Position numbers and translations under genes: made by a program. Shown piece after piece: positions 24,101 through 63,871 of a stretch of 64,000 nt of DNA (the first letter of the stretch is position 1; each line of letters opens with the position of its first letter). The stretch is from Antedon mediterranea (Eukaryota; Echinodermata; Crinoidea; Comatulida; Antedonidae): NCBI RefSeq assembly GCF_964355755.1, contig NC_092670.1, positions 16,367,201-16,431,200 of the forward strand, written 5' to 3'. The notes beneath the pieces were generated by a model, which searched no databases, was not told where the DNA came from, and saw only the letters and a program-made list of their open reading frames with translations.

Positions 24101-27100
24101 TTTTATCGAAAATAAATTCTGACAATTTTGAACATTTTAAGCGCGTACGCATGCGTTATATGCGCTACGCACGTAATTGTAGTGCCATATGATGAAATAT
24201 GACCTCAAATTTTGTTTAAAAGTGATTCATGCTTGTGAAGATATGATTACAAACGTGATTTCGTTAAATCGTGCGTAGACCGCGTAATTTTTGATTGCGC
24301 ACCGTGAAAACATAACCACATCGATTCCTGGCCATAAGGAATATACTCTGAAAAATTGACTTAGCTAGATTAAACTGATACCAAGATAATTCACGGACAA
24401 AATTGTGTTAAGGAAAGAATAAATAAATATGCATATAACCTAATTAAAGTAAGTTTGGGAGGCTCTTGAAGAATTGATTGATTGATTGAATTTATTTGAT
24501 GCTCAACATTAAAATAACAAACAGACAAAAGACAAAATAACGAGCATCAGGAACACCCATTAGGCCGGAAAAACCAGCCCATTTCCAATGGGGTCCAAAT
24601 TGCACATAACAAACAAGAGAAAATACAACATTAATAAAACTATAAATATATAAATATACATTAAAATAAAGCCCAGTAAAACAGAAAAATTAAAAGAGAA
24701 AGCAAACAAGAAATGAGAAAAATTGCACGTAATCAAGACCATTATAGTTATCAAAATTATTCTAAATATAAAATATTGCGTTCAAAATGTTTTTTAATAT
24801 GAGATTTGAAGGTAGTTAAGTTGGAAATTAATTTTAAGTTTGATGGAAGAGCGTTCCAGTCTTTGATAGCAGAGAAGAAAAAAGTAGAATGAGACTGTTT
24901 ATTTCCTTTAAGTAGAGGTAAAACCAGATTAACATTACGTTGGCGTGTGTTATGTGTGTGGATTGTGGATGTCCGTGAGAAATGTTCAGATAGATATGGA
25001 GCTGCATTGTTATTGACAATTTTATGAACATTACAAAGCCTGAGAAATTTTACTCTACTTTCCACCTTAAGCATGCCAATGTCTGATAACTCCTTCTGAC
25101 CAATATGAGATCGTGGTCCGAAACCGTAAATAAAACGCACAAATTTGTTCTGAGTGGTCTGTAGTTTTTGCTTCAAAACTTTGTCAATACCTTCATACCA
25201 AGTCGAAGCACAGTAATCAAACAAGCATTGAATTAAGGCAGAGCATAACAGTTTTTTCGTGTTTTTGTCCAAGCAACTAGCCTGACGATATAAATACCTT
25301 AATCTACTATTCGCCTTTTTTATAACACTTTTGGCGATGTTGTTACAAGAGGCAGAACTATCAAGTTCTATACCTAAATATTTTACTGACTTAGAACCCG
25401 TTAAAGTAAGGCCATGAGAAATAATATTGAAAGATCGTAAACGTTGAAGTCGTTTTTGGGTACAAAATATGATAGATTCAGTTTTACTGATATTGATAGA
25501 TAGTTTGTTATCGACAAGCCATACTCTACATGAATCAAGAGCTTTACTAAGTTTATCAGCGACGACAGTCGGATCTTTGTGCCAGAAAACAATTGCACTG
25601 TCATCAGCATATAACAGCAATTTGCATTCAGGGTCGATACTTACAACCATATCGTTTATGAAACATAAAAAAAGCAAAGGACCCAGTATGCTACCCTGTG
25701 GAACTCCACATGAAATATCCATGGGAACGGATAAGGAGTCTTCGATTTTAACAATTTGGCTTCTGTTTGACAAATATGAACGAAACCAGTCTAATGAGGT
25801 GATGCCCATTAACAAAAGCTTTTCACACAATATATCATGATCGACAGTGTCGAATGCCTTACATAAATCTATAAGTACCATACCAGTATGTGTACCTTCG
25901 GAGTTATTTAATTTAATTGTGTCTAACAGATTAATTAAAGTACTTTCGGTAGAATGAAATTGCCGAAAACCTGACTGATATTGATAAATAAGATCATTTT
26001 CCACAAGGTACTGTTCTAACTGAACATGAACCGACCTTTCGAGAATTTTTGAGACAACACTTAAGACGCTGATGGGTCTATAGTTTTCTGGATTTTTACG
26101 ACATTTTTTTTTATACAGTGGGATGACTTTAGCTATTTTAAAATCACTCGGAACAACTCCTGTATTAATTGACAAATTGATAAAATACGTTAAAGGGGAA
26201 GCCAGTACACCGGCGCCATCTTTAAGGAATTTAGCTGGTAGCCCATCGAGACCTGTACTTTTCGTAGGGTCAAGACTTTCAAGTTGTTTAAGAATGAATT
26301 CTTCTGACACAGGTTTAAGGCTAAAAAGAGTTGTAACTTTTGAAGAATAAAAGTCTTTTACAATTTTGGAACCATAGTTAAACATGTTACTCATGGGTGG
26401 AAGTTTATCAACAAGATATCTTGCTACATTGGTAAAATGATTATTAAAATGTGTAGCAACCTCTTGTGGATTGTGAATTTTTGATTCATTTATTTCCAAA
26501 ACAACTTTAGCTTGTTCAGACGTCTTTTCACTATATCCTAATTTCTTAAGATGTTGCCATAATTTCTTAGGATTGTTTTTATTTTCAATTATTTTATTTC
26601 GAAAATACGTTGATTTAGCTTTTTTAACATTGCGCTTGACCTTGTTTCTTAATTTACAATACATATCATGATCTTCTTTGATTTTACTCTTTTTAAATTT
26701 ATTAAAATATTGATCACGAGTTCGTATATCATTTAGAATATCTGTGTTAAACCATGGATCTGACCTTTGTTTCACCCTCATCTTTCTAAGAAGCAACAGT
26801 CCTAGTCAGGGAAGGGAAATGCTGCTTTAGGTGGGGGAGGGGGGGTGTCTAGAGTGGGTTGGGATGTAGCCTAGAACCACTTTATTCTGCTCGGTTTAAA
26901 AATGATATTCAGGAGTCCAGAGAAAAGTCATACTTGGTTACAGCCAGCATCAAACCCAGCATCAAACTCTGGGATTGTAAGTAGATCTACAACCATACTG
27001 GTAATGCCATACTTGCCAAACCATTTAAAATATGTAATGATAATTGTTGTAATTTAATACAACAGCACAAGTGATGCACCTTTGGAAACAACAAAAATGA

Positions 27101-48410: not shown

Positions 48411-48637
48411 TCACTGTTTTGTGACTGTGAAGATGTCATCATCTACCTCAGTGTTTGGCCCTTCTGGTATTGATTGAAAAACATTGTCATACGGTTGTTT
48501 GCTTTTAGTAACAGTACAAACAAGAACGACGAGAAAGATGACTATTAAAATTACTAGGCCAGCTATGATACCTATCCACCATGGCTCAACCAGAAACGAG
48601 TTGTCACTAGTGCTTGCAGCTGCCTCTGAATTTGGAG
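48411..48637 (-). other. Last exon of the EGF gene: transmembrane helix and cytoplasmic tail
   Basis: After a short Ser/Ala stalk, [20 protein letters not shown] forms one membrane helix, then CTVTKSKQ begins the tail. The tail is only about 30 residues, contains PYDNVF, a possible phosphotyrosine or sorting motif, and an acidic cluster, and ends TVTKQ. The stop is at 48413-48411. Confidence 0.85.
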
Positions 48638-51600
48638 CTGAAAGATATTGAAAAACATTGAAATATAAATATAGTTGTATTAAAGGGTATTTTATATTCT
48701 TACAAGCTCAGCCCTTGAACATGAAATATGATAAAATATATATATGACTCAGTAGTATAACAATAAAAAATCTCAAAGAGAGGGGATATTTTCATATTCA
48801 TTAAAACTTCTGTTTAAAAATCGATAAGAAGAGTTGATAATACATTTGTTTATGTGCAAGTGCATGTCTTTTTATCATGTTATGAGAGTGCAGTTAAAGA
48901 AACAGTATGTGTGTTCATCTGCACATGATTGAAGAAATTTAGTATAAAGGTTGAACCTTCTTTATCACACTAGTATTCAATATATAACTACTATTAAAAT
49001 ATATTAGAAAACGTTATTTATAATAGGTTATTGTGTTATTTATTTGTAGTAAGATTTGAATTAAACGATAAATGGTTTACGTAATAGTCGTAATTGTGTG
49101 CATCATTAGAAATATACTATGACTGTTAATTATTTAATTATTATTTAATATAGATTTATAGACGTGATGATGGCCAAGTTGCATGTATCATTCTCTGTAC
49201 CTCTTATTAAGAGGTTTCATGAGCGCATTAGTTAATTTTCATCCCATTGAGCATTGAGCCACTCTTGTGGCTTACATTACCAAGTGATTCAACTGGTGAA
49301 CACAGTGATAAACATCAGGGGCCTAAATGAACCAGAACACTGGGGTGACCTACTTATTTCAAAAGAGGAACTTAGGTTCTTTTAAGTGCACAGTAGCCCA
49401 AGAAGACTCGACTACATGAACCAATACACTGTTATGAATCTTCTACTCTCAAGAGTAAATTCTCTACACTAAACATTGAGCCCCTCCCTCAACTGCTTGA
49501 CCAATACAAATCTATAAAAATTAGTTATCCACTTTGAATATCACCTGTATGCAGATTGTTAAGAATCATTAAGAATTAGCGTGAATCCAGATGCAGACAT
49601 CTCTAAAGTGTGACTGGTTAGAGACTACTAGTTTACTTACATCAAAGAAAATCTGGTAAAAATCACTATATATCAACTATAAAAAATAATCACCAATTAC
49701 TATTAGAAAAATCTTTAAGACAATAAAACACTCCAATTACTTGACCTTTGACATGAAGTTATCAATATTCATTATGTTGATTATTTCAATGTAGCATGTT
49801 AGGTTGTGTAGAAAATGAACTCATGTCTAATAGCAAGTATACACCACACCATATTGTTCTGGTTGCAGATCAAGTCAAATAAGGATCGTAAACCATAGGC
49901 ATAGAGTAATTGTATTATGTGCACTTCAAAGAACCCAAAACTAACAATTTCCTTGGGTATGTTGTGTAGCCTTTCCCAGAAGACTTAGACATTAGACAAA
50001 CTGTGTAAAAACATTCACAAAACAGCAAAGCCCATATAAACCAAGAGTATTATGGGTAAAAACAATTTTACCTTCTATTACTAATATTTTGATTAAAAAA
50101 CCAAAAACAAGCAAAAATGACAATAAACTTGAAAAATGAATGTAGAAAATGTTGAGTAAAATGTAGAGAAGCGGCACTTAATTAAGTGAGAGCTTTGGAA
50201 GGAATGTGTACTTACCAAATTGACAGTTAGTACCAGAGTAACCTGCTTCACATAGACACAGATAAGAGCCTACTTGATTCTGACATGTACCTGCAACCTC
50301 ACAAGGATTACTAGAACACTCGTCAAAATCTGTCAAAAATAACAATGAAAATAAAAACGAATAATAATAACAAAATTGTGTACAGTAAAATTTGATAAGT
50401 ATTACTATCAGGTTATCTTACTGGGCTGGTTGCATAGTTATGGTAAATTTTGATAAATTTTACCAAATAGAGTCCAGAGCAATTTATCAAAATCATTGAC
50501 ACATCAATACACATGCATATTGTTATTTTGCAGGGATGCCACCACGCTGGTCGGTGGTGGACGGGCCCCAAATAAATGAACATTTCATATATTGTGACGT
50601 GAAAAATACACAACCAATAAGAACTCAGGAATATTTGATTTGCGCGAACACATTTGCTAGTGGAAAACAGGCTTTACATAAACATAAAAAGAAATAATCA
50701 ACAAATACATCATTTGCAAAACTGTAATAAACAATGTTAAATCTCCCATATACAAAAATAAATTTATCTTACCAATTTCGCATCGATCTCCACTTATTCC
50801 TGGATAACAGCTGCAGATATACCCATTGGAAGAATCTATGCATACACCATTATTTCCACAGGGATTACTTAAACATTCATTAACATCTGGAAAAAAAAAA
50901 TGATTTAACAAATTTATATTAAAAACCAGCCATCGGTAGCTTAAAAAATCCAATGTGGTTTATTCCTAGAAACACTAGGGGTGGTTACAGATGAAAAAAA
51001 ATGTTTAGTCTTAGTTGTCAATTCCTTATACAATATTAGGTTATCTTTACCAATATACATGTTGGATATGTTTCTAAACTGAGTTAAAACTAGCTAAAGA
51101 TTACTGGTAGCCGACTGGGCTACAAAAACCATACCTGTAGCACAATTTGCATCTGAATATCCTGGAGGACAAAAGCAAATGTATCCAGAATTTGAAAATG
51201 GTTGACATGTACCACCGTTTTGGCAAGGGGCTATGTCACAGTCGCTTTCAACAGCTAAAAACAAAATTTATAAAATGACGTCACTATTACAAACAGAAAA
51301 TGTAAAAAAGTATCTTGGCATGATACAGTACATTTTTTACTATAAAATACTTATGGTATTAATTAAATATGGGGTGAGGAAAAGGGGTGGAGGTAGTCGG
51401 GGTGGGGGAGGGAAGATCATAAACATCTATTTAGACAAATAGTCAATACAATTAAACATTTGATTGTAAATCAAAATGAAGGTAGGATAAAGAAGTAAAC
51501 TTACGTTGTTCACATTGTGCACCTATATATTCTGCTGGACAGAAACACACAAAGCTATTTACTTGATCAATACAATTACCCCCATTCAAGCAAGGTTGAC

Positions 51601-54600
51601 TTTGACATTCATCGCTATCTATTAAAAGATACAAAAAAATGCACATTATCATCACGATTATTTTAACAGGACTATTTTGTTTGAGTTGCATGACGAAGAA
51701 TAGACTAAAAAACATGGTCCTTCAAATCCAGCCATATGTTTTTTATTATGCTTTATTCATCAGCCCAGGGCATAGCACACAATTGCAAAATGTTTAGAAA
51801 AACCTGTTCAATGTACTCTAAACAATTAACCCAAATAATTCATAATAATAATAATAATAATAATAATTCCTCCTAAATTACCAAATACAATACAAAATAT
51901 GTGACATAAGTTCAAAACTTCATTTTATAATTTTTAGGCCCTCAGTGCCCTACTTCAAAATCCTGAATTAACCACTGTGTGTATAAAATATACTTTACCA
52001 ATGATTGGTGCAGGCGTCTTGATAAAGTCTTGACTATGAACATGAATAATAATGTTTTAGACTTACCTATTTCACACAAATCACCCTCATAGCCGACAGT
52101 ACAAGTACAGATGAAGGTTTCAGGTGAGGTTGCAATACAAGTTCCACCATATAAACAAGGATTCTCACGACAAATTACTAAAAACAAAATGAATCGGGAG
52201 TAATGAATTATCATTATCAAGAATCAAAAGGCAAATTACTAAAAAATTAGCTGTAGAGTTGTGTTGCATGCGACTAAAAATTATGCTGTGGGTATCAGTG
52301 GCTGTATTTCTATATAAATCGAACGATTGATTGATTGATTGAGACACAAATAAAATGAGCAAAACGCTAAATAAAAACGATAAAATAAAACAGCCAGAAC
52401 AAATTTTCAGAGTTTTCGGGCAACATTAACACTTCCTCAGTGCAATAATTATAAAGCTCTGTCTACACTTTCAAACTAGTTTGACAAAAAAGTGTGATGT
52501 CGCCAAATATGGTAGTGATATTCCCAAATATGGTAATGATATGACATCATCATGTCTATATATGGGTACATCATATTTTTTTGTCACATAAAGTGTGATA
52601 GTGTAGATAGAGCTTTATATAAGAAATATATCAGCAGAATAAAATATACAAATCAACATATTCTCTATTTGTCCTTTAAAACTAATATGATAATATTGTA
52701 CTTACTAGGTTCTTCGCAGTTGTTTCCCTGGAATGCTTTAGTACAACTACAATAATACTGGTTTACACTATTTAAACATGTGCCACCGTTCATACATGGT
52801 TGACTTTCACACTCATCAATATCTGCCGTGTAAAAAATTATACAAAATATGATAGTAAGTCGCAATTACTTCTGTTTCTTTTGATAAAAGGTAATTCAAC
52901 GCTTGATGGTTCAGAGGTATGGACCATAGTCAACTCCCCTAATACCAGACACCCTTGATCTGGCCTAATATGTCTGGTTTTCACTTTGAAAAAAAATGGG
53001 GACCTTTTGGATCTCAAGAAAAGTCTCGTTTTTGGTAGAGTTTCCTGTTTTCAGATATTCCAGTATTGGGCAGGTATAATTGGTTTGAAATCATACACAC
53101 AGAAGATTGAGTACATTGAATTTGCAATTTACAATCAGGTTATTCACTACCTACCCTACTGGAATTTACAATCAGGTTATTCACTACCTACCCTACTGGA
53201 ATTTACAATCAGGTTATTCACTACCTACCCTACTGGGATTTACAATCAGGTTATTCACTACCTACCCTACTGGAATTTACAATCAGGTTATTCACTACCT
53301 ACCCTACTGGAATTTACAATCAGGTTATTCACTACCTACCCTACTGGAATTTACAATCAGGTTATTCACTACCTACCCTACTGGAATTTACAATCAGGTT
53401 ATTCACTACCTACCCTACTGGAATTTACAATCAGGTTATTCACTACCTACCCTACTGGAATTTACAATCAGGTTATTCACTACCTACCCTACTGGAATTT
53501 ACAATCAGGTTATTCACTACCTACCCTACTGGAATTTACAATCAGGTTATTCACTACCTACCCTACTGGAATTTACAATCAGGTTATTCACTACCTACCC
53601 TACTGGAATTTACAATCAGGTTATTCACTACCTACCCTACTGGAATTTACAATCAGGTTATTCACTACCTACCCTACTGGAATTTACAATCAGGTTATTC
53701 ACTACCTACCCTACTGGAATTTACAATCAGGTTATTCACTACCTACCCTACTGGAATTTACAATCAGGTTATTCACTACCTACCCTACTGGAATTTACAA
53801 TCAGGTTATTCACTACCTACCCTACTGGAATTTACAATCAGGTTATTCACTACCTACCCTACTGGAATTTACAATCAGGTTATTCACTACCTACCCTACT
53901 GGAATTTACAATCAGGTTATTCACTACCTACCCTACTGGAATTTACAATCAGGTTATTCACTACCTACCCTACTGGAATTTACAATCAGGTTATTCACTA
54001 CCTACCCTACTGGAATTTACAATCAGGTTATTCACTACCTACCCTACTGGAATTTACAATCAGGTTATTCACTACCTACCCTACTGGAATTTACAATCAG
54101 GTTATTCACTACCTACCCTACTGGAATTTACAATCAGGTTATTCACTACCTACCCTACTGGAATTTACAATCAGGTTATTCACTACCTACCCTACTGGAA
54201 TTTACAATCAGGTTATTCACTACCTACCCTACTGGAATTTACAATCAGGTTATTCACTACCTACCCTACTGGAATTTACAATCAGGTTATTCACTACCTA
54301 CCCTACTGGAATTTACAATCAGGTTATTCACTACCTACCCTACTGGAATTTCTAGCCTAGCATGTGTAAGAGGGTCTAAACCAACATGTGCTCACCTTGT
54401 TCACAGAAAGTTCCCATATATCCCGGTGCACAATCACAAAAGCTGATGCCATCTGAACCTACTACACACATTCCTCCATTATGACACATTGTTGGTGTAC
54501 AACCTCCATCGGTAGCTGGTTTTGGAAAAAAAACATGCTGACGTAAGTATTACGAATAATATTCTTCATCAAACCGTTAGATGACTAATTACAAAATTAA

Positions 54601-57600
54601 TTATGCTTTCTAAACAAAGTTCACTTTTCAAAACTACTATCATCAATCATTATCAATAACATTATAAAGCTCTGTCTACATTATCAAGTTAGTTTAACAA
54701 AAAAAGTGTGATGTGCCCAAATATGGTAGTGATATGACATCACCGTGTCTATTTATGGGCACAACACATTTTGTTGTCACATAAAGTTTATAGTGTAGAC
54801 AGAACTTAGCATTTGCATTCAGAATATACATACAAGAACAGAACTGTCCAGTAAAGCCAGGCAGACAGGAACAAACTGTATTGCCTTGTGAGTCCAGGCT
54901 ACATGATCCAAGATTCTGACATGGGTTGGGATTACATGCACCTGGAATAACAAAAACACATTACAAGAATAATGGAAGAGACATAAATATTAAACATTTA
55001 GTTCTACCCATCGCAACAAGCATATGGCTGACTCACCTTATAGGAGGGGATGAAATCTAACTTGATACTTTGGTATTGTGGCATAAACAAGGATAGAACC
55101 ATATATCATTATATATATAAAATGTTGTCTTAAAGTTGGAAATTGTCAATATATACATACTTTGAGTTTCACAGTTTGTTCCAATATAATTGGTAGGACA
55201 ATCACAAGTATAACTTTCGACGACATCATTACATGTTCCTCCATTCAGACATGGGTTACTATCACATGGGCTAGTAGCTATAGTAAAAGAAAATATACAT
55301 ATTAATATAAAATCATGTCTTTACCATAGAGTTAGTATATTACAACTAGAGTCATGCAGCAACACAGGCATGGTGCTGGGTAATGGCATAGTAGATGCGA
55401 TTGTATTCAACTCTCTATATATAATAACTCTATGCTTATTTACAGCTACAGAAAATTCCTTTTCTTGCGAAAGGTCCATACTTTTTCGCTAAATAAATGT
55501 GAACTTGAATCGAAGTACAGCAAATAAATAAAAGGAAAAATTATATTTGTTCAGAATTGGGACAGAATTTGCTTCAATTTTGTCAAGAATACTCTCTTCT
55601 CTTTCAGTACTTTCAAATCAAATAAAAAATACTTTTCAGTTTGTGTAATTTCTTTACAGTTTACCAATGTTGTTTATATTTATATCAAGGTTTTGTAATA
55701 AAATCTTTATTACAGTATTATTAAATATTAGTCCTACTTACTTTGTATTTCATCATCCTGGAGAGTAATACTAAATCCTCTTGCAGTTATAGCATCATTT
55801 GAAATAAAACTAATAAACACTTTATTATCTGTAGAAATAAAGTTTTGCGGTTTATCTGGTCCCGAGTGTCTGACAACAAGCATTGATGTGTCGGCTGGGT
55901 TGTCGCCATTACCAACTTCCAACCAATCATTCATAAGCTCAGTTGAAAAATCGTTGAATATGACACGTATTCTACGACCTTCGGCAATTGTGATAGTCCA
56001 CAAACAGTTATCTCCGTTGTTGTAATTTTCAGGGTAGTTATTTGAAGTCAGTACTAAGTTGTCATTAGTTGGTATTGTGTAGTCATTTACACACTGGCTT
56101 TCTCCTAATATAGGAACATAAAAAGATAATATATAATTTATGATATTTCAAAGTGAGTGACTACTGTCGAAAAGAGCCATGAAACTATGCCAATGTTATG
56201 GCTGTATGTTGCCCCTGCCTTTAGCAACTTAACTCAACTTTAAGGAATTTGTCACTGTCAGTTTCATTACGAAAAAATTGGATCATTTATGTTACTCAAA
56301 AGTAATTAGTAACATATACAATAAAAAATATTTAAAATAAAACAATTGGAAAGAAAAATACAAGAGCTTTAGGTAAAAACATGAAACTATGATTACAAAC
56401 ATGAATTAACTTACGAATTTCACAGAAAGTTCCAGACCACTGCCCTTTACAAAGACATATGAATCCATCCACAAATGGAAAGCAATCACCACCATTAAGA
56501 CAAGTATCATTTTGACATTTCGACTCAACTGAAATTTAAAATTGTTACATTTATTCACATTATTTTGTGTGTTTTGGTTTCATTTTTAATTTATTTGTTC
56601 TGGACATGGTTATGTTCTGAAAATGATAAAGTAAAAAATGTATTTGTTCTGGATTGTACTAACTGGTTACTAGACATAAACATTACAGTATTTAATTTTG
56701 TTTATTTCTATAATTAATTTAATTGTGTACTTACACGTGTCACAGTTAAAGCCAGTATATCCAGGTTGACAATGTTTATTTCTATAATTAATTTAATTGT
56801 GTACTTACACGTGTCACAGTTAAAGCCAGTATATCCAGGTTGACAATGTTTATTTCTATAATTAATTTAATTGTGTACTTACACGTGTCACAGTTAAAGC
56901 CAGTATATCCAGGTTGACAATGTTTATTTCTATAATTAATTTAATTGTGTACTTACACGTGTCACAGTTAAAGCCAGTATATCCAGGTTGACAATCACAC
57001 ATGTAACTATTGGCTCCTTGGCTAAAACACACACCATTCACACAAGGATTACTTAAACAAGCATTTTTATCTAAAAACAGAAAACAGATATTTTTAGACT
57101 AAACTCAGTAGTTTAATACAATTACAACCCTGTTGGTGCAGTACCCGCTGCTTACTTGGGTTCGAATCTAACCACTAGCCATCAGCGCAAGCTCGGTGGT
57201 CTAGAGGTATGAACGATAGGCTAGGGATCGCGGGTTCGAATCCCACCCAAGAATTACTCAAATGTACTTAGTATGAAATACAAATTACGTCAGAGTAGGG
57301 CATCTGACCAATTACTCCCTGACGCAAAAGCTACTCCATAGTAGTTTAATACAATTACAACCCTAGACTAAACTCTAGGGAAATGAAGTATAAAATGATA
57401 AAATAAGTAAACATGTTTAAATAAAGATAATAGAAAGTTCTAAAAGTTCTTTTTGTTACATACCAAATTCACAGTTTGTTCCGTCATAGTCATCTGTACA
57501 AACACATGTATAAGAAGTACAAGCATCCTCACATGTACCTCCATTCTGACAAGGTGCGCTAACACAAGCAGAAACATCTAAACAAAATAATATAATTACA

Positions 57601-60600
57601 CTTGAATTTAAACTAGTATATGGCACAATGAAGTAAAACATACTGTGAACAACCAATTACCAAAATAAACTGTTACAGCTATGGTGTAAATTTGAATTAT
57701 AAGGAAAAAAACAAAGTGTACAAAATGGGATAGATGGGTAGATAACACAGTAAAATAAAAGCTTCCAAATATTGTAATAGGAATAGCAACGTTTTGGAGT
57801 AAATTTTAAACTATGTGATTTAAAAAAAATCAGTGCATCTATTGTTAACTGTAGCTATACACACAGAAATAGATTAGGCCACAACAATTATTGAACGGTC
57901 TCCATAATCATACCATTTTGACAGAATTGACCAGAATGACAAGAGTCACAAGCACAGATGAAGTTTTCAGGTGTTGGTACACATGTGCCACCGCTCACAC
58001 ACGGGTTATTGTCACATATATCTAACAAAGAAAAAAAAAGAAATAAACAAATGATAAATCTAACATTAAGGTCTATCATTAAACAAAATGCACAGTTAGT
58101 TAGGCTCTTCCATGTACAGTGATCTTGATATTTGTTAACATGTAAAAGGTAAAGGTGAGTCCCGTGTTCTCTGAACGTAGGGGAATGAGCTGTTAGGAGC
58201 ACATTGTACTAAGCCTCGGCATTATGTGGTAGGGTGGCCAGTTCCTTTCCACGCCGTCTTTTTTCTCCCTAGTATTTTCAACCAGGTACTCATTTTACAG
58301 CTGAGTGGACCGGGAGTTGTCGGGCATTGAACCCGGGTCTATCTGTACGACAGTCAAGTGTCCTAACCACTCGACTGTGTTAACATGTACCTAAAAAGGT
58401 GAGTTGAATAGTATGAAAATCGTCATCTTTCAACTCAAATGTCACCAAGACACATTTTTACATATTTTAACAAAAAGACCAATGAAATGTATTCATTATC
58501 TAATCTGCTAAATTAAACAATGTCATTTTATACTACTTACAATTTTGACAATTGTCTCCGGAATAACCGACAGCACATTCACAGGAGTAAAAAGAACACG
58601 AGTTTGTACACGTCCCTCCATTAATACATGGATTCCCATTGCAAGCATTGATTTCTAAAAGAAATGATGAACAGAATTAGTATTGCTTGTGAGAGTCTAA
58701 AGCTCTGTCTACACTACCACACTTTGTGACAGAAAAATGTGATGTGCCCATATATGGAAATGATGATGTCATATCACTACTACCATATTTGGACACAACA
58801 CTTTTTTTGTCAAACTAGTTTGATAGTGTAGACAGAGCTTAATAACAAACGATTACAAACAAAAATTTATCAGTTTGTAGAAATTGCAGCCTGACTATAA
58901 AGTAAAGCTGAATGAAGTAAAACCAGTTTATTATAACTATTATTTACAATATTTTTTATTTTTAGTAGTGTCTGGCTAAAAAATTTTTAAATGCTTACGT
59001 TCAGTGCAGAGTTGACCAGTCCAACATTCTTGGCATTGACATACAAAATCCTCTGTATCTGGGCAACCATTATTACAAACACCTCCATTTTGACATGGTG
59101 ATGAAGCACAGTTGTCTACAACTAAACAAATAACATACAATCGTTAATAATAATCAATATTATAATGTCAAAATATACCTTTAATGTTAGTTTTTATGTA
59201 TCTAATGACTTACGTATGTTACAGGTGCTGCCAGCCCAACATTCAGAACACTGACAGGTAAATTCACCACATGAGTTTCCTTGGACACAGTTACCTCCAT
59301 TCATACAGGGAAAGGCCGCACATGCATTTATATCTATAAATTAAATAATTTAATTTAAGTTAGCATTACGGCGTTCACTGGTTACTCAGATTGATTACAT
59401 TGAGGAGGTACACTTATGTTTTGTTAAGAGGGGAATTACTGCAGCAACCAAAGAGAAATTACTGCAGTAACTAAAGAGGAATTACTGCAGTAATAAGTAG
59501 TAGTAAGATGAATAAATACTTCATTAAGTCAAAAAAAAGTTACCTGTTTCACAGTTGGGACCAGATTTGCATACAGGACATGTACAGGTGTAACTACAGG
59601 TGTCTGTTGATGCATCTAGCTGGCACACACCTCCATTCAAACATGGGTTGTTAGGTTCACACAATGTTGCTTCTGAATTGAATAAAAACAAACAAACGAT
59701 TAATGATGTTCTACCACTATACTGGTTTGTGACAGTGTGCCACCTATGTTGTTAGTGCAATTACCTGTTTGGCATTGATTGCCACTGTAGCATGTTTGAC
59801 AGGTACAGGTGTACCCTTGACATAATCCATCAGGCACACATTCACCCCCATTAAAACATGGGTTGCTCTGGCATGGGTTCACATCTGAAATTTTTATTTA
59901 AAAAAAAAATTATATATATTTTTATTCAGCAATTATTTACCAAATATCATCTCTCTTAAGCTCTGTATACACTATCCTACTTTATGAGATAAAAACAAGT
60001 TATGTGCCCATATATGGACATGATATCACTTCTATATTTTGGCCACTGTCTGTCTGTGTAAACAGAGCTTTATATTACAAGGTGTGTATTAATTAGTGGT
60101 GAATCTTACTTGTTTGGCAGTTGGTTCCACCATAACATAGCGAGCACTGACATGAATAGGCTTGACAATTAAATGCATCTACGTCACATACCCCACCATT
60201 TTGACAAGGGCTGGTGGAACAACCATTCACACCTTGAGAAAAAAAAAAGAAATACAGTTTAAACTTCAATATACTAATAATAACAAATCCGAAGTTTTTC
60301 ACTTAACTAAACCAAGGACACTAAAGCTCTGTCTATACTATCAAACTAGTTTGACAAAAAAAGTGTGATGTTCCCAAATATGGTAGTGATATGACATCAT
60401 TATATCCATATATGAGCACATCATATTATTTTGTCATATAAAGTTTGATGGTGTAGACAGAGCTTTAAAGGAGTTTACAATCACTATGGTAACAAAAGAT
60501 TGACTGAATATCATAGCAACCCATGGACAGTTGTAAATACTAATAAAAAATGAGAACATTTTTACAAAACTTACTGATTTCACAGAAAATTCCTGTATAG

Positions 60601-63600
60601 CATTGTGCACATTGACATCCAAAGTAACCGCAATCATTAACCGCTGGGTAGCATTGACCTCCGTTTTGACACGGGTTACTCATGCATGAATTGGTATCTA
60701 ATAAACAAAAACAACCGTACTTAGAGACTATGTAAAGTGATACATTAAACTTTACATGACACCCTTTGGAAAGTTCAAAATGTCTGTTTTATTGTTGTCT
60801 TATTTTATTCAAATATTCAATAGTGTTGGTTATGTCTGATTATATGAGATGTTTTACAAACCGATTTCACATCGATCACCAGTATAGCAACCACTACATT
60901 GACATGTGTAGTCTCCACATCCAACTCCACTCTCAGAGCAAACACCTCCATTGAGGCATGGGTTCGGACTGCAGCCTTGTGTAGCTGCAATATAATATTC
61001 AACATAATTATAATGTGAATAAAACAATGGAGAAACTGTCACCACTTGACAATGGCAGAGGGCAGATTGTGTGGCAGTGAATGTGGATCTTCTTTACAAG
61101 ATGGCCGCATTGGAGTTGAAGATCTAGTCTTCGGCTTTAAGATCTTTGAATATATTACATCTTTCAGATGTGCTAAATTATTTCGATATCCAGGTCTAAG
61201 GGAGATGGTTGCATTTGACCAGTCCTGTAGTATCATTACAAATACCTCAATGGTCATTCCCTCTTCTGTTACAGTAAACTAAAGCCTAATACTTCATAAA
61301 CATATACTTTACCCATTTCACATCTGTCACCAGAGAAGCAACCAGTACATGTGCAGGTAAAGACTGAGCAGCTAACCCCAGATGTTGAGCACACTCCTTG
61401 ATTTAAGCATGGGTTTGATGCACAGGGATTAGACACTAACAACATAAACAAAATAATAATTTTAGTAAAAATGACTACTAATCATTTAAATCTGTACATG
61501 AACAATTTATTTTATAGAAAGTAAAAATATATTTGCTATTAAACTAACTTTTGGATTTCTCAAAAATGACATGTTTCTATATATCCTCATGTATCAATGC
61601 GATAGGGAAGATTTACTTGGATGCAATGCAAGGATGTAAGTCCTCCGCAAGTGCTTTGACTAATCGGACGATGGGTTATTCAATACTGTCTTGTGATTGG
61701 TCAACTCTTTTGCATTGCACCTACATTGTTGCTTAAGCAGAAGAAGTGCTGCAGTCCCCATCTTAAATATTGTTTGAGTAGAAAAAAATAAGTAGAAGTG
61801 AAGAGAATTTATAAACAAAACAACTTACATGTTTCGCAGAAGTCACCAGTGTAACAATCAGAACACTGGCAGCTGTAACTACTACATGTATTCACAGAAG
61901 ATATACAGGTTGCCCCATTCAAGCAGCCGTTGTTATCACAAGGATCCAAAACTATTAAAAGATAACATCATGTCAGTGTGAAAAGGAATTATTGTTATTA
62001 TAAGGATCCAAAACTATTAAAAGATAACATCATGTCAGTGTGAAAAGGAATTATTGTTATTATAAGGATTCAAAACTATTAAAAGATAACATCATGTCAG
62101 TGGGAAAAGGAATTATTGTTATTATAAGGATCCCAAAACTATTAAAAGATAACATAAAATCTGTGTGAAAAGGATTGCAATTACAAGGATCCAAAACTAC
62201 TAAAAGATAACATCTTGACAGTGTGAAAAGGAATTATGGTAGCTATTAAATGATTAAAACAGAAGCCACACTTTCACTCAAGATACATCTATTTATCTTA
62301 GTGAGCCTCAATCAATACTTGTTTTTATTAACCTATTTTGCTTAATTTGCAACTGCATAAGATGTAGACACATACAAAGCGGACAGAAAATGATAGTCTT
62401 TTGACACGTATAATGCCACTACTACACTGCCCAATTGTTCATTTTTCTAATTTTATATTCAACTTACATGTTTCACAACTGGGACCTGTAAAACATTCTG
62501 AACATCCGCAAGTATAGCCAGAACATTGTCCAACAACAACACACTGACCTCCATTTAAACAAGGGTTACTGGCACAAGGCTGTATACCTAGGAATTAATA
62601 TAAATTAAATATCAATATTTGCCTTTTAAATCAAAGCACAATAAAAAACGAAACAAAAAATGTGAATTATGATGTAATGATGATGGTAATACTGATGATA
62701 TGATGGTGGTAATGATGATGATGACTGTAATACTGATGATATGATGGTTGTAGTGATGACAGTAATGAAGATAATGATGATGGTAATACTGATATGATGA
62801 TGGTAATACTGATGATGTGATGGTAGTAATGATGACAGAATGATGATGATGCTGGTAATACTGATAATATGATGGTTGTAATGATGACAAAAATGATAAT
62901 GATGATGGTAATACTGATGATATGATGGTGGTAATGATGACAGTAATGATGATGACAATGATGATATTTATCATTTTGATGAAAATATAATAGCAAAACA
63001 CCATCAAAATAGAAGTTAGAAGTCAAAATTAGAAGAAAAACTCACTTATTTCACATGAATCTCCTTCCCAACAAGAAGCACAAGAACAGACATGGGTGTC
63101 ACACCCACCTTGGAAACATACACCACCATTCTGACATGGGTTATTTAAGCATGATCTTTGCTCTAAGCATTAAGTAAAGAAAAAGAATACCAAAAACATA
63201 AAAAAATTATCTCCCATAGAAACAGTAAAAAACAGAGAATATCCCATAAACAAGATAAAATTAACAGAACAGGAATTAAGTCAGTGAAAATGTAATTTAA
63301 AATAAATTTTACAAATAATGATTGCTGATAAATTAAATAAATCTCTTTCCACACCATCAAACTAGTTTGAAAAAAAAGTGTGATGTTCCCAAATATGGTA
63401 GTAATATGACATCATCATCACATAACGTTTGATAATGTAGACAGAGCTTAAAACAAATGTTTGTGGGAACACAACAAACTCCTAATGGATAATAGTGAGC
63501 CTTAAAATGGTAGTCTTCATCATCAGGAAAATAAAGAAAACAGGACAGGACATGCATTTTACAGGTGAGGAATGGTTCTGGTAAAAACTAATTTTTATTG

Positions 63601-63871
63601 GTCAATCACTAGGTGTTTAGCAATGACCAACTATTAACATTTAGTTTTGTCGAGGGAAATTTGAAACTTCAATCTACATTTATCAGATTGCTTTGATTCC
63701 ATTTCAGACTTTAATCGGGGTATTAAAAATTGATAAAAGAAAACTTACCAGTTTCACAAAAGGTACCTGTATAGCAACCAGTACAATTACATGTATACGA
63801 ATCACATGATCCAGGCACTGGGGTACACGCCGCACCATTTGCACAGTTATTATTAAAACATGGGTCAGCCT
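48411..63871 (-). CDS. Giant multi-EGF/CUB single-pass membrane protein (3' part; 5' end outside window)
   Basis: Exons, 5' to 3': 63871-63749, 63162-63046, 62587-62468, 61951-61829, 61435-61313, 60984-60862, 60697-60575, 60232-60110, 59884-59765, 59672-59544, 59333-59214, 59121-58999, 58654-58541, 58021-57914, 57577-57464, 57070-56957, 56528-56415, 56104-55742, 55277-55161, 54941-54834, 54515-54396, 52822-52706, 52177-52067, 51618-51505, 51254-51135, 50886-50773, 50329-50216, 48637-48411. Every internal exon is phase 1-1 and a multiple of three, the classic shuffled-module pattern. There are 26 single-exon EGF domains, one CUB exon (55742-56104) and a final exon with a transmembrane helix and short tail, about 1218 codons in all. 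The N-terminal 12 EGFs have eight cysteines, the next three seven, the rest six. Several near the C-terminus have calcium-binding starts (DFDEC, DVNEC, DSDEC, DIDEC). It resembles fibropellin/Notch-type proteins, but no named orthologue was recognised. Likely an adhesion receptor or matrix-anchoring protein (inference). Confidence 0.9.
49195..49495 (-). mobile_element. Degraded SINE family A copy
   Basis: Retains fragments of the family body (AACTTAGGTTC, AGAAGACTCG) and a weak tRNA-like end. A second weak fragment lies at about 49865-49990. Confidence 0.4.
51842..51868. repeat. (AAT)n microsatellite
   Basis: A short uninterrupted run of AAT units in an EGF-gene intron. Confidence 0.9.
52383..52447 (-). 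mobile_element. Penelope-like terminal fragment, antisense
   Basis: The minus strand reads TTGCACTGAGGAAG ... TTGCCCGAAAACTCTG ... CTGGCTGTTTTA, a diverged copy of 17560-17660. It is directly followed by a MITE. Confidence 0.45.
52454..52615. mobile_element. MITE family 1, full copy
   Basis: AAGCTCTGTCTACAC to ATAGAGCTT with TA on both sides. EGF-gene intron. Confidence 0.88.
53127..54347. repeat. 37-bp minisatellite, exactly 33 copies
   Basis: A 37-bp unit containing ATTTACAATCAGGTTATTC and CTACCTACCCTACTGGA is repeated from 53127 to 54347 (1221 bp = 33 x 37), nearly without variation (one visible ACTGGG variant near 53237). It lies in an intron of the EGF gene, just downstream of exon 54515-54396 in transcript order. 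It contains no stops in three plus-strand frames, so it makes false ORFs. Confidence 0.97.
54667..54806. mobile_element. MITE family 1, full copy
   Basis: AAGCTCTGTCTACATTATC to GTAGACAGAACT with TA on both sides. Its right end is about 28 bp from the exon 54941-54834 donor. Confidence 0.85.
55742..56104 (-). other. CUB domain exon
   Basis: One 363-bp phase 1-1 exon encodes a CUB-like fold: [28 protein letters not shown], then [13 protein letters not shown] and [20 protein letters not shown]. These follow the family order of NYP, C-W-I, F-F and F-SD-GF. CUB domains bind proteins or carbohydrates outside the cell. It sits between canonical EGFs in the protein. Confidence 0.85.
56700..56995. 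repeat. 74-bp tandem repeat, 4 copies, spanning a splice donor
   Basis: Four apparently identical 74-bp units start at 56700, 56774, 56848 and 56922. Each carries the last bases of the exon 57070-56957 coding end, its GTAAG donor, and intron start. Confidence 0.95.
57181..57345 (+). mobile_element. SINE family C (tRNA-like) copy
   Basis: GCTCGGTGGTCTAGAGGTAT (A-box region) and GGTTCGAATCC (B box) at tRNA-like spacing, in an EGF-gene intron. Confidence 0.65.
58190..58386 (-). mobile_element. tRNA-like SINE, antisense
   Basis: The minus strand has GAGTGGTTAGGACACTTGAC and GGGTTCAATGCC, a Val/Lys-type tRNA head, followed by a non-tRNA body. Confidence 0.6.
58700..58839. mobile_element. MITE family 1, full copy
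   Basis: AAGCTCTGTCTACACTACC to GTAGACAGAGCT with TA on both sides. EGF-gene intron. Confidence 0.88.
59959..60070. mobile_element. MITE family 1 copy
   Basis: AGCTCTGTATACACTATCC to AAACAGAGCTT with TA on both sides; diverged. Confidence 0.8.
60324..60465. mobile_element. MITE family 1, full copy
   Basis: AAGCTCTGTCTATACTATC to GTAGACAGAGCTT with TA on both sides. EGF-gene intron. Confidence 0.88.
61942..62240. repeat. 62-bp tandem repeat, 5 copies, spanning a splice acceptor
   Basis: Units begin with GGATCCAAAACTATTAAAAG at 61942, 62004, 62066, 62128 and 62187. Each includes the acceptor of exon 61951-61829 and its first few coding bases. Later copies are more diverged. Confidence 0.9.
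62675..62985. repeat. Imperfect (TGA)n-type microsatellite
   Basis: ATGATGGTAATACTGATGATATG-like trinucleotide-rich sequence of about 300 bp lies in an intron. The three overlapping His/Ser-rich minus-strand ORFs here are artefacts. Confidence 0.85.
63342..63448. mobile_element. MITE family 1, internally deleted copy
   Basis: CACCATCAAACTAGTTTGA left arm, shortened core, ATGTAGACAGAGCT right end before TA. Confidence 0.8.

What the first reader, a model, noticed from the sequence alone, without database searches (positions are those of the whole stretch)
56957..63871. EGF modules step from eight to seven to six cysteines along one protein
Counting cysteines exon by exon from the N-terminus gives 8 in the first twelve modules. 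The next three have 7: exon 58654-58541 keeps only the extra Cys before C-x-C, 58021-57914 only the one after it, and 57577-57464 only the one before. From exon 57070-56957 on, all have 6. The two extra positions vary together in the 8-Cys block, so they probably form a fourth disulfide that is not laminin-type. The three odd-numbered modules look like intermediates, or leave free cysteines that could bond between modules or chains.
Basis: partly seen in the sequence, partly recalled or inferred. Interest (0 to 1): 0.78.

Follow-up and report, generated by a model that had tools for sequence, protein, structure and literature searches.

The report
EGF arrays with paired intermodule cysteines
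In this unnamed animal, hundreds of small EGF modules carry two extra cysteines placed so that each module is probably bonded to the next one, like links of a chain; the modules with one extra cysteine that looked like intermediates are the end caps of these chains, an arrangement I found no description of.

Summary
The cysteine counts are right: in the window twelve modules have 8 Cys, three have 7 and eleven have 6. But the window shows only the tail. Upstream the same gene continues, giving one run of 90 8-Cys modules. The run starts with a module holding only the extra Cys after C-x-C ("b") and ends with one holding only the extra Cys before it ("a"); a b-only/a-only pair follows. Every b is thus followed by an a in the next module. 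Modules of this kind recur genome-wide (665 pattern hits, 7 in the control). Across the arrays read, b and the next module's a agree at 300 of 303 junctions, whereas 23 of 317 modules are odd if a and b paired within a module. Caps are not one lineage. In solved Notch tandems the equivalent positions lie at the contact between neighbouring modules. Calcium-binding residues are lost in the array (0 of 72). So the extra pair most likely forms a disulfide between adjacent modules; the 7-Cys modules are caps, not intermediates. One array breaks the rule at both ends. No two-module structure was predicted and no chemistry tested. I found no description of such a bond.

The parts
58999..63871 (-). 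Twelve 8-Cys EGF modules, one per phase 1-1 exon: 63871-63749, 63162-63046, 62587-62468, 61951-61829, 61435-61313, 60984-60862, 60697-60575, 60232-60110, 59884-59765, 59672-59544, 59333-59214, 59121-58999. C-terminal part of a run of 90
58541..58654 (-). C-terminal cap of the long run: 7 Cys, only 'a' (before C-x-C)
57914..58021 (-). N-terminal cap of a two-module block: 7 Cys, only 'b' (after C-x-C); preceded by the only 4-residue linker
56415..57070 (-). Two 6-Cys EGF modules (57070-56957, 56528-56415)
55737..56104 (-). CUB domain (Pfam PF00431, E 1.4e-20; exon start read from the acceptor, end approximate)
50216..55277 (-). Nine 6-Cys EGF modules, several with the calcium-binding consensus
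48414..48707 (-). Reading frame with a hydrophobic, probably transmembrane stretch, a short cytoplasmic tail and a stop: likely C-terminus of the gene (exon start not fixed)

Best explanation
The window holds the C-terminal part of one giant type I membrane protein (signal peptide, EGF, CUB, a b-only EGF, 90 8-Cys EGFs, an a-only EGF, a b-only/a-only pair, two EGFs, CUB, nine EGFs, transmembrane segment). In the 8-Cys run, Cys b of module n (three residues after the fifth canonical Cys) bonds to Cys a of module n+1 (five residues before the fourth canonical Cys, at the tip of the major hairpin). These are the positions that pack against each other, without a bond, between neighbouring modules of Notch-type EGF tandems. 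The bond would lock each junction and take over the work that calcium does in calcium-binding EGF pairs, giving a long, covalently clamped stalk that does not need calcium. Shown: the sequence pattern, its end rule, the constant linker, the loss of calcium residues, the number of arrays. Inferred: the disulfide itself, the rod shape, the function as a cell-surface stalk or adhesion protein.
For: (1) End rule: every run with resolvable ends except one starts with a b-only module and ends with an a-only module. Over all arrays read, b(n) and a(n+1) agree at 300 of 303 junctions, while 23 of 317 modules would be odd under pairing within a module and the opposite polarity breaks 31 junctions. (2) The caps are not one inherited lineage: with cysteines masked, some a-only caps are closest to 8-Cys modules, others to 6-Cys modules, and the b-only caps are mostly unlike one another. 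(3) Linker: 91 of 92 junctions in the window's gene have six residues between C6 and the next C1; the one exception, with four, is the only junction inside the run without a b-a pair. (4) Position: in Notch1 the packing aromatic four residues after C5 touches the major hairpin of the next domain (W287 with H316, which is C4 minus 5); in EGF5-6, A208/T209 (C5 plus 2 and 3) contact V239 (C4 minus 4) (PMC4826273). In this genome's own 6-Cys modules these positions are mostly Gly and often Ile/Val/Phe. (5) Calcium consensus: 0 of 72 8-Cys modules against 4 of 8 6-Cys modules of the same protein. (6) In array C1b two b-only modules follow each other, and the second carries an extra Cys in its linker, which could serve as the partner. 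(7) A single 8-Cys module is predicted as a canonical EGF (pLDDT 82.6, TM about 0.8 to Notch and factor IX EGFs).
Against: The large C1b array (C1:13.836-13.860 Mb) starts and ends with 8-Cys modules next to 6-Cys ones, so an a and a b are left without partner. Array C2b could not be resolved at either end. Several C8 arrays are recent copies of each other, so the counts are not all independent. The end rule alone cannot tell a bond within one chain from a one-module-staggered bond between two chains.
Confidence: 0.82

Rival explanations
1. The two extra cysteines form a fourth disulfide inside each module.
For: 90 modules in the gene, and well over 250 in all arrays read, carry both; the large C1b array has only modules with both or neither.
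Against: 23 modules carry just one, b-only at the N-terminal end or a-only at the C-terminal end of a run. In the canonical EGF fold, C4-5 is at the hairpin tip that faces the previous domain and C5+3 is in the loop that faces the next one (PMC4826273).
Confidence: 0.06
2. The bonds join two parallel chains with a stagger of one module, giving covalent fibres instead of one locked stalk.
For: The end rule allows it, and the orphan a and b at the two ends of the large C1b array could join molecules end to end. Teneurin EGFs with odd Cys are my recalled example of bonds between chains.
Against: The positions already touch within one chain in solved EGF tandems, and a constant six-residue linker tied to the pair points to one chain.
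Confidence: 0.09
3. The 7-Cys modules are evolutionary intermediates or carry free thiols for redox-dependent assembly, as proposed for the scallop adhesive protein Sbp9 (PMC13348336).
For: Free thiols in EGF repeats have been reported for Sbp9.
Against: Intermediates would be expected in either polarity and inside the arrays; those seen lie at the ends or at the internal break, with fixed polarity.
Confidence: 0.03

Closest known systems
Tandem calcium-binding EGF domains of Notch and fibrillin
   Same: EGF fold, six canonical cysteines, linker of six residues as in Notch, packing of the aromatic after C5 on the hairpin of the next domain (PMC4826273)
   Different: No extra cysteines; the junction is stabilised by calcium and hydrophobic packing. 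Here the calcium residues are gone and both contact positions are Cys
Laminin-type EGF
   Same: Eight cysteines
   Different: From established knowledge: the additional two cysteines form a fourth loop C-terminal to the EGF core; here one lies between C3 and C4 and one between C5 and C6
Integrin EGF (I-EGF)
   Same: Eight cysteines
   Different: From established knowledge: the extra bond is inside the module (C1-C5) with other spacing
Teneurin EGF repeats 2 and 5
   Same: Odd cysteines in tandem EGFs that bond outside their own module (from established knowledge)
   Different: Single odd Cys used for dimerisation between chains; no run of paired modules
Marine adhesive EGF proteins (Pvfp-5 beta, Sbp9)
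   Same: Tandem EGFs in invertebrate extracellular proteins; similar sequence (Pvfp-5)
   Different: Six Cys per module (PMC9314366, PMC13348336)

Membership tests
EGF module (PF00008) | Six canonical cysteines with EGF spacing and the C-x-C before the last loop | tested here: met
   All modules of A1 keep them; 27 of 37 match PF00008 at E up to 1, best 1.4e-5, mostly weak; single-module model matches Notch and factor IX EGFs
Calcium-binding EGF | [DN]-x-[DN]-[EQ] before C1 | tested here: not met
   0 of 72 8-Cys modules
Laminin-type EGF | Extra two cysteines C-terminal to the EGF core | tested here: not met
   Extra cysteines lie between C3-C4 and C5-C6 in every module
Laminin-type EGF | Match to the laminin EGF profile | tested here: not met
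   Not among the 13 Pfam families matched by the 37 modules
Disulfide-linked tandem EGF (this proposal) | b in module n is matched by a in module n+1 | tested here: met
   300 of 303 junctions; the three disagreements are all in the C1b region
Disulfide-linked tandem EGF (this proposal) | Actual bond between b(n) and a(n+1) | not testable with these tools
   Needs a two-module structure or mass spectrometry

The most novel reading that the evidence does not exclude
A so far undescribed architecture: long EGF stalks in which every junction is locked by a disulfide between neighbouring modules instead of calcium, closed at both ends by half-modules, and expanded to hundreds of modules in about a dozen loci of one animal genome.
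Probability: 0.68. Interest if true: 0.8.

Novelty: new variant of a known kind. Interest (0 to 1): 0.72.

Why it matters
Tandem EGF proteins are stiffened by calcium. A natural design that locks each junction with a disulfide would be a calcium-independent way to build very long extracellular stalks, can be read from sequence alone by a simple end rule, and gives a ready template for engineered rods. It also warns against reading odd-cysteine modules as intermediates or free thiols without looking at the neighbouring module.

Tried and rejected
A five-cysteine DNA pattern was too unspecific, the C-x-C-x2-C-[FY]-x-G-x2-C one was specific. Viral and prokaryotic contigs: pattern matches were chance, none is an EGF module. 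Other animals could not be searched. PDB sequence searches with single and two-module profiles gave Notch, Delta and clotting-factor EGFs; the five best alignments printed lack both extra cysteines. Literature searches found no intermodule EGF-EGF disulfide. Naming the species failed. Considered and dropped: laminin-type, intramodule bond, gradient 8-7-6, free thiols.

Full report
What was claimed.

The observation. A search for phase 1-1 exons with EGF cysteine spacing recovers the 26 modules with the stated coordinates and counts: twelve with 8, three with 7, eleven with 6. The plus strand gives none. The pattern is far from chance: the spacing C3-x(3-10)-Ca-x4-C4-x-C5-x2-Cb-x5-C6 is nearly fixed except for the first gap.

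The window is a tail. The window is G000:C1:16367201-16431200 of a 354 Mb assembly. The flank read upstream continues the same run of phase 1-1 exons. Altogether there are 90 8-Cys modules: 89 found by the six-frame parser plus exon 86425-86249, which that parser skips because its last loop lacks Gly. The run starts at 97623-97504 with a module that has only the Cys after C-x-C ('b'). In protein order the states are: 6-Cys, b, (a+b) x 90, a, b, a, 6-Cys. Around it the gene reads: a reading frame with a likely signal peptide near 101.5 kb, an EGF-like exon at 98978, CUB at 98.4 kb (PF00431, E 2.5e-10), the run, two EGFs, CUB at 56.1 kb (E 1.4e-20), nine 6-Cys EGFs and a probable transmembrane segment with a short tail at 48.7-48.4 kb. 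Upstream lie a UDP-glycosyltransferase gene and another 6-Cys EGF gene. The gene model is mine; no transcripts were available.

The rule. The 7-Cys modules are ends. Each 'b' is followed by an 'a' in the next module: the long run opens with b-only and closes with a-only, and the pair 58021/57577 is a run of two. To test this I looked for the same module elsewhere. The DNA pattern for C-x-C-x2-C-[FY]-x-G-x2-C gives 665 hits in the genome against 7 for the reversed pattern. I read parts of further arrays on C1, C2 and C8. Arrays C8a, C8b, C8d, C8e, C8f, C8h and C2 open with b-only and close with a-only. C8g and C8i close with a-only (their starts were not read). The small C1b block has b, b, a, where the second b-only module carries an additional Cys in its linker. 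In all, b(n) and a(n+1) agree at 300 of 303 junctions; the three disagreements are all in C1b. Pairing within modules would leave 23 odd modules, and the reverse polarity 31 broken junctions. Assigning polarity at random to the 23 odd modules gives on average 18 broken junctions. That table of states was entered by hand. The recent copies on C8 are not independent. With cysteines masked, however, the caps do not form one family: some a-only caps resemble 8-Cys modules, others 6-Cys modules, so caps probably arose several times with the same polarity.

Why the positions fit a bond between modules. Cys b replaces the Gly of the C-x-x-G-[FY] motif. Cys a sits five residues before C4, at the tip of the major hairpin. 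In tandem EGFs of Notch1 the aromatic four residues after C5 packs on the major hairpin of the next domain; the paper names W287 with H316 in EGF7-8 and A208/T209 with V239 in EGF5-6 (PMC4826273). Counted on the sequence, W287 is C5+4, A208 and T209 are C5+2 and C5+3, V239 is C4-4 (Notch1 EGF4-7 sequence). H316 is C4-5 by counting on the human sequence as I recall it, where residue 316 is indeed His. In this genome's 6-Cys modules C5+3 is mostly Gly and C4-5 often Ile, Val or Phe. The aromatic after b is kept in 83 of 89 8-Cys modules. Within one canonical EGF the two positions face opposite neighbours.

Linker and calcium. 91 of 92 junctions have six residues between C6 and the next C1; the only exception, four residues, is the junction 58654 to 58021, which has no b-a pair. 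The linker length of six equals that of Notch. The full calcium consensus before C1 occurs in 0 of 72 8-Cys modules and in 4 of 8 6-Cys modules of the same protein. This suggests that the bond replaces calcium.

Structure. AlphaFold2 on a window module with the 26 window modules as alignment gives a canonical EGF (pLDDT 82.6) whose best PDB matches are Notch1 and factor IX EGFs (TM about 0.8). No coordinates are returned, so distances were not measured.

Known or new. Pfam models match the modules only as ordinary EGF, mostly weakly. PDB profile searches return Notch, Delta and clotting-factor EGFs, and the best alignments lack both cysteines. Full-text searches found no disulfide between consecutive EGF modules; subscription literature and predicted-structure databases were not available. 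Hence 'new variant of a known kind', with the caution that proteins of this sort may sit undescribed in other invertebrate genomes.

Limits. The large C1b array leaves one a and one b unpaired, possibly because exons are missing, because the gene ends there, or because these ends bond to other molecules. C2b is unresolved at both ends and C8c is broken by an insertion. The species is unknown. The disulfide is inferred, not shown.

Noticed in passing
67566-64672 (flank L001, window coordinates continued) and 64207-61313: Recent tandem duplication of six consecutive 8-Cys modules, period about 3.36 kb, with two amino acid differences seen; it straddles the window end.
   Followed up: partly
window 56699-56995: 74-bp perfect tandem repeat, four copies: the end of exon 57070-56957 with its splice donor is repeated three more times in the following intron.
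   Followed up: partly
window 53126-54351: 37-bp minisatellite, 33 copies at 99% identity, in an intron of the gene; it reads as long open frames on the plus strand.
   Followed up: no
window 61930-62237: 62-bp tandem repeat, five copies, running into the splice acceptor of exon 61951.
   Followed up: no
window 24757-26805, minus strand: 682-aa open frame that reads like a LINE reverse transcriptase.
   Followed up: no
L013, C1:13850609-13850838: Two 8-Cys modules in one exon, a natural two-module piece for structure work.
   Followed up: no
C2:13.68-13.83 Mb and C8:10.54-10.58 Mb: Very large arrays of nearly identical 8-Cys modules, some with more than one module per open frame; apparently still growing by tandem duplication.
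   Followed up: partly
L015, C8:1332500-1333560: b-only cap module of a C8 array split by an insertion: a broken array copy.
   Followed up: partly
L011, C1:13833991: b-only module with an extra Cys in the linker just before C1, following another b-only module.
   Followed up: partly
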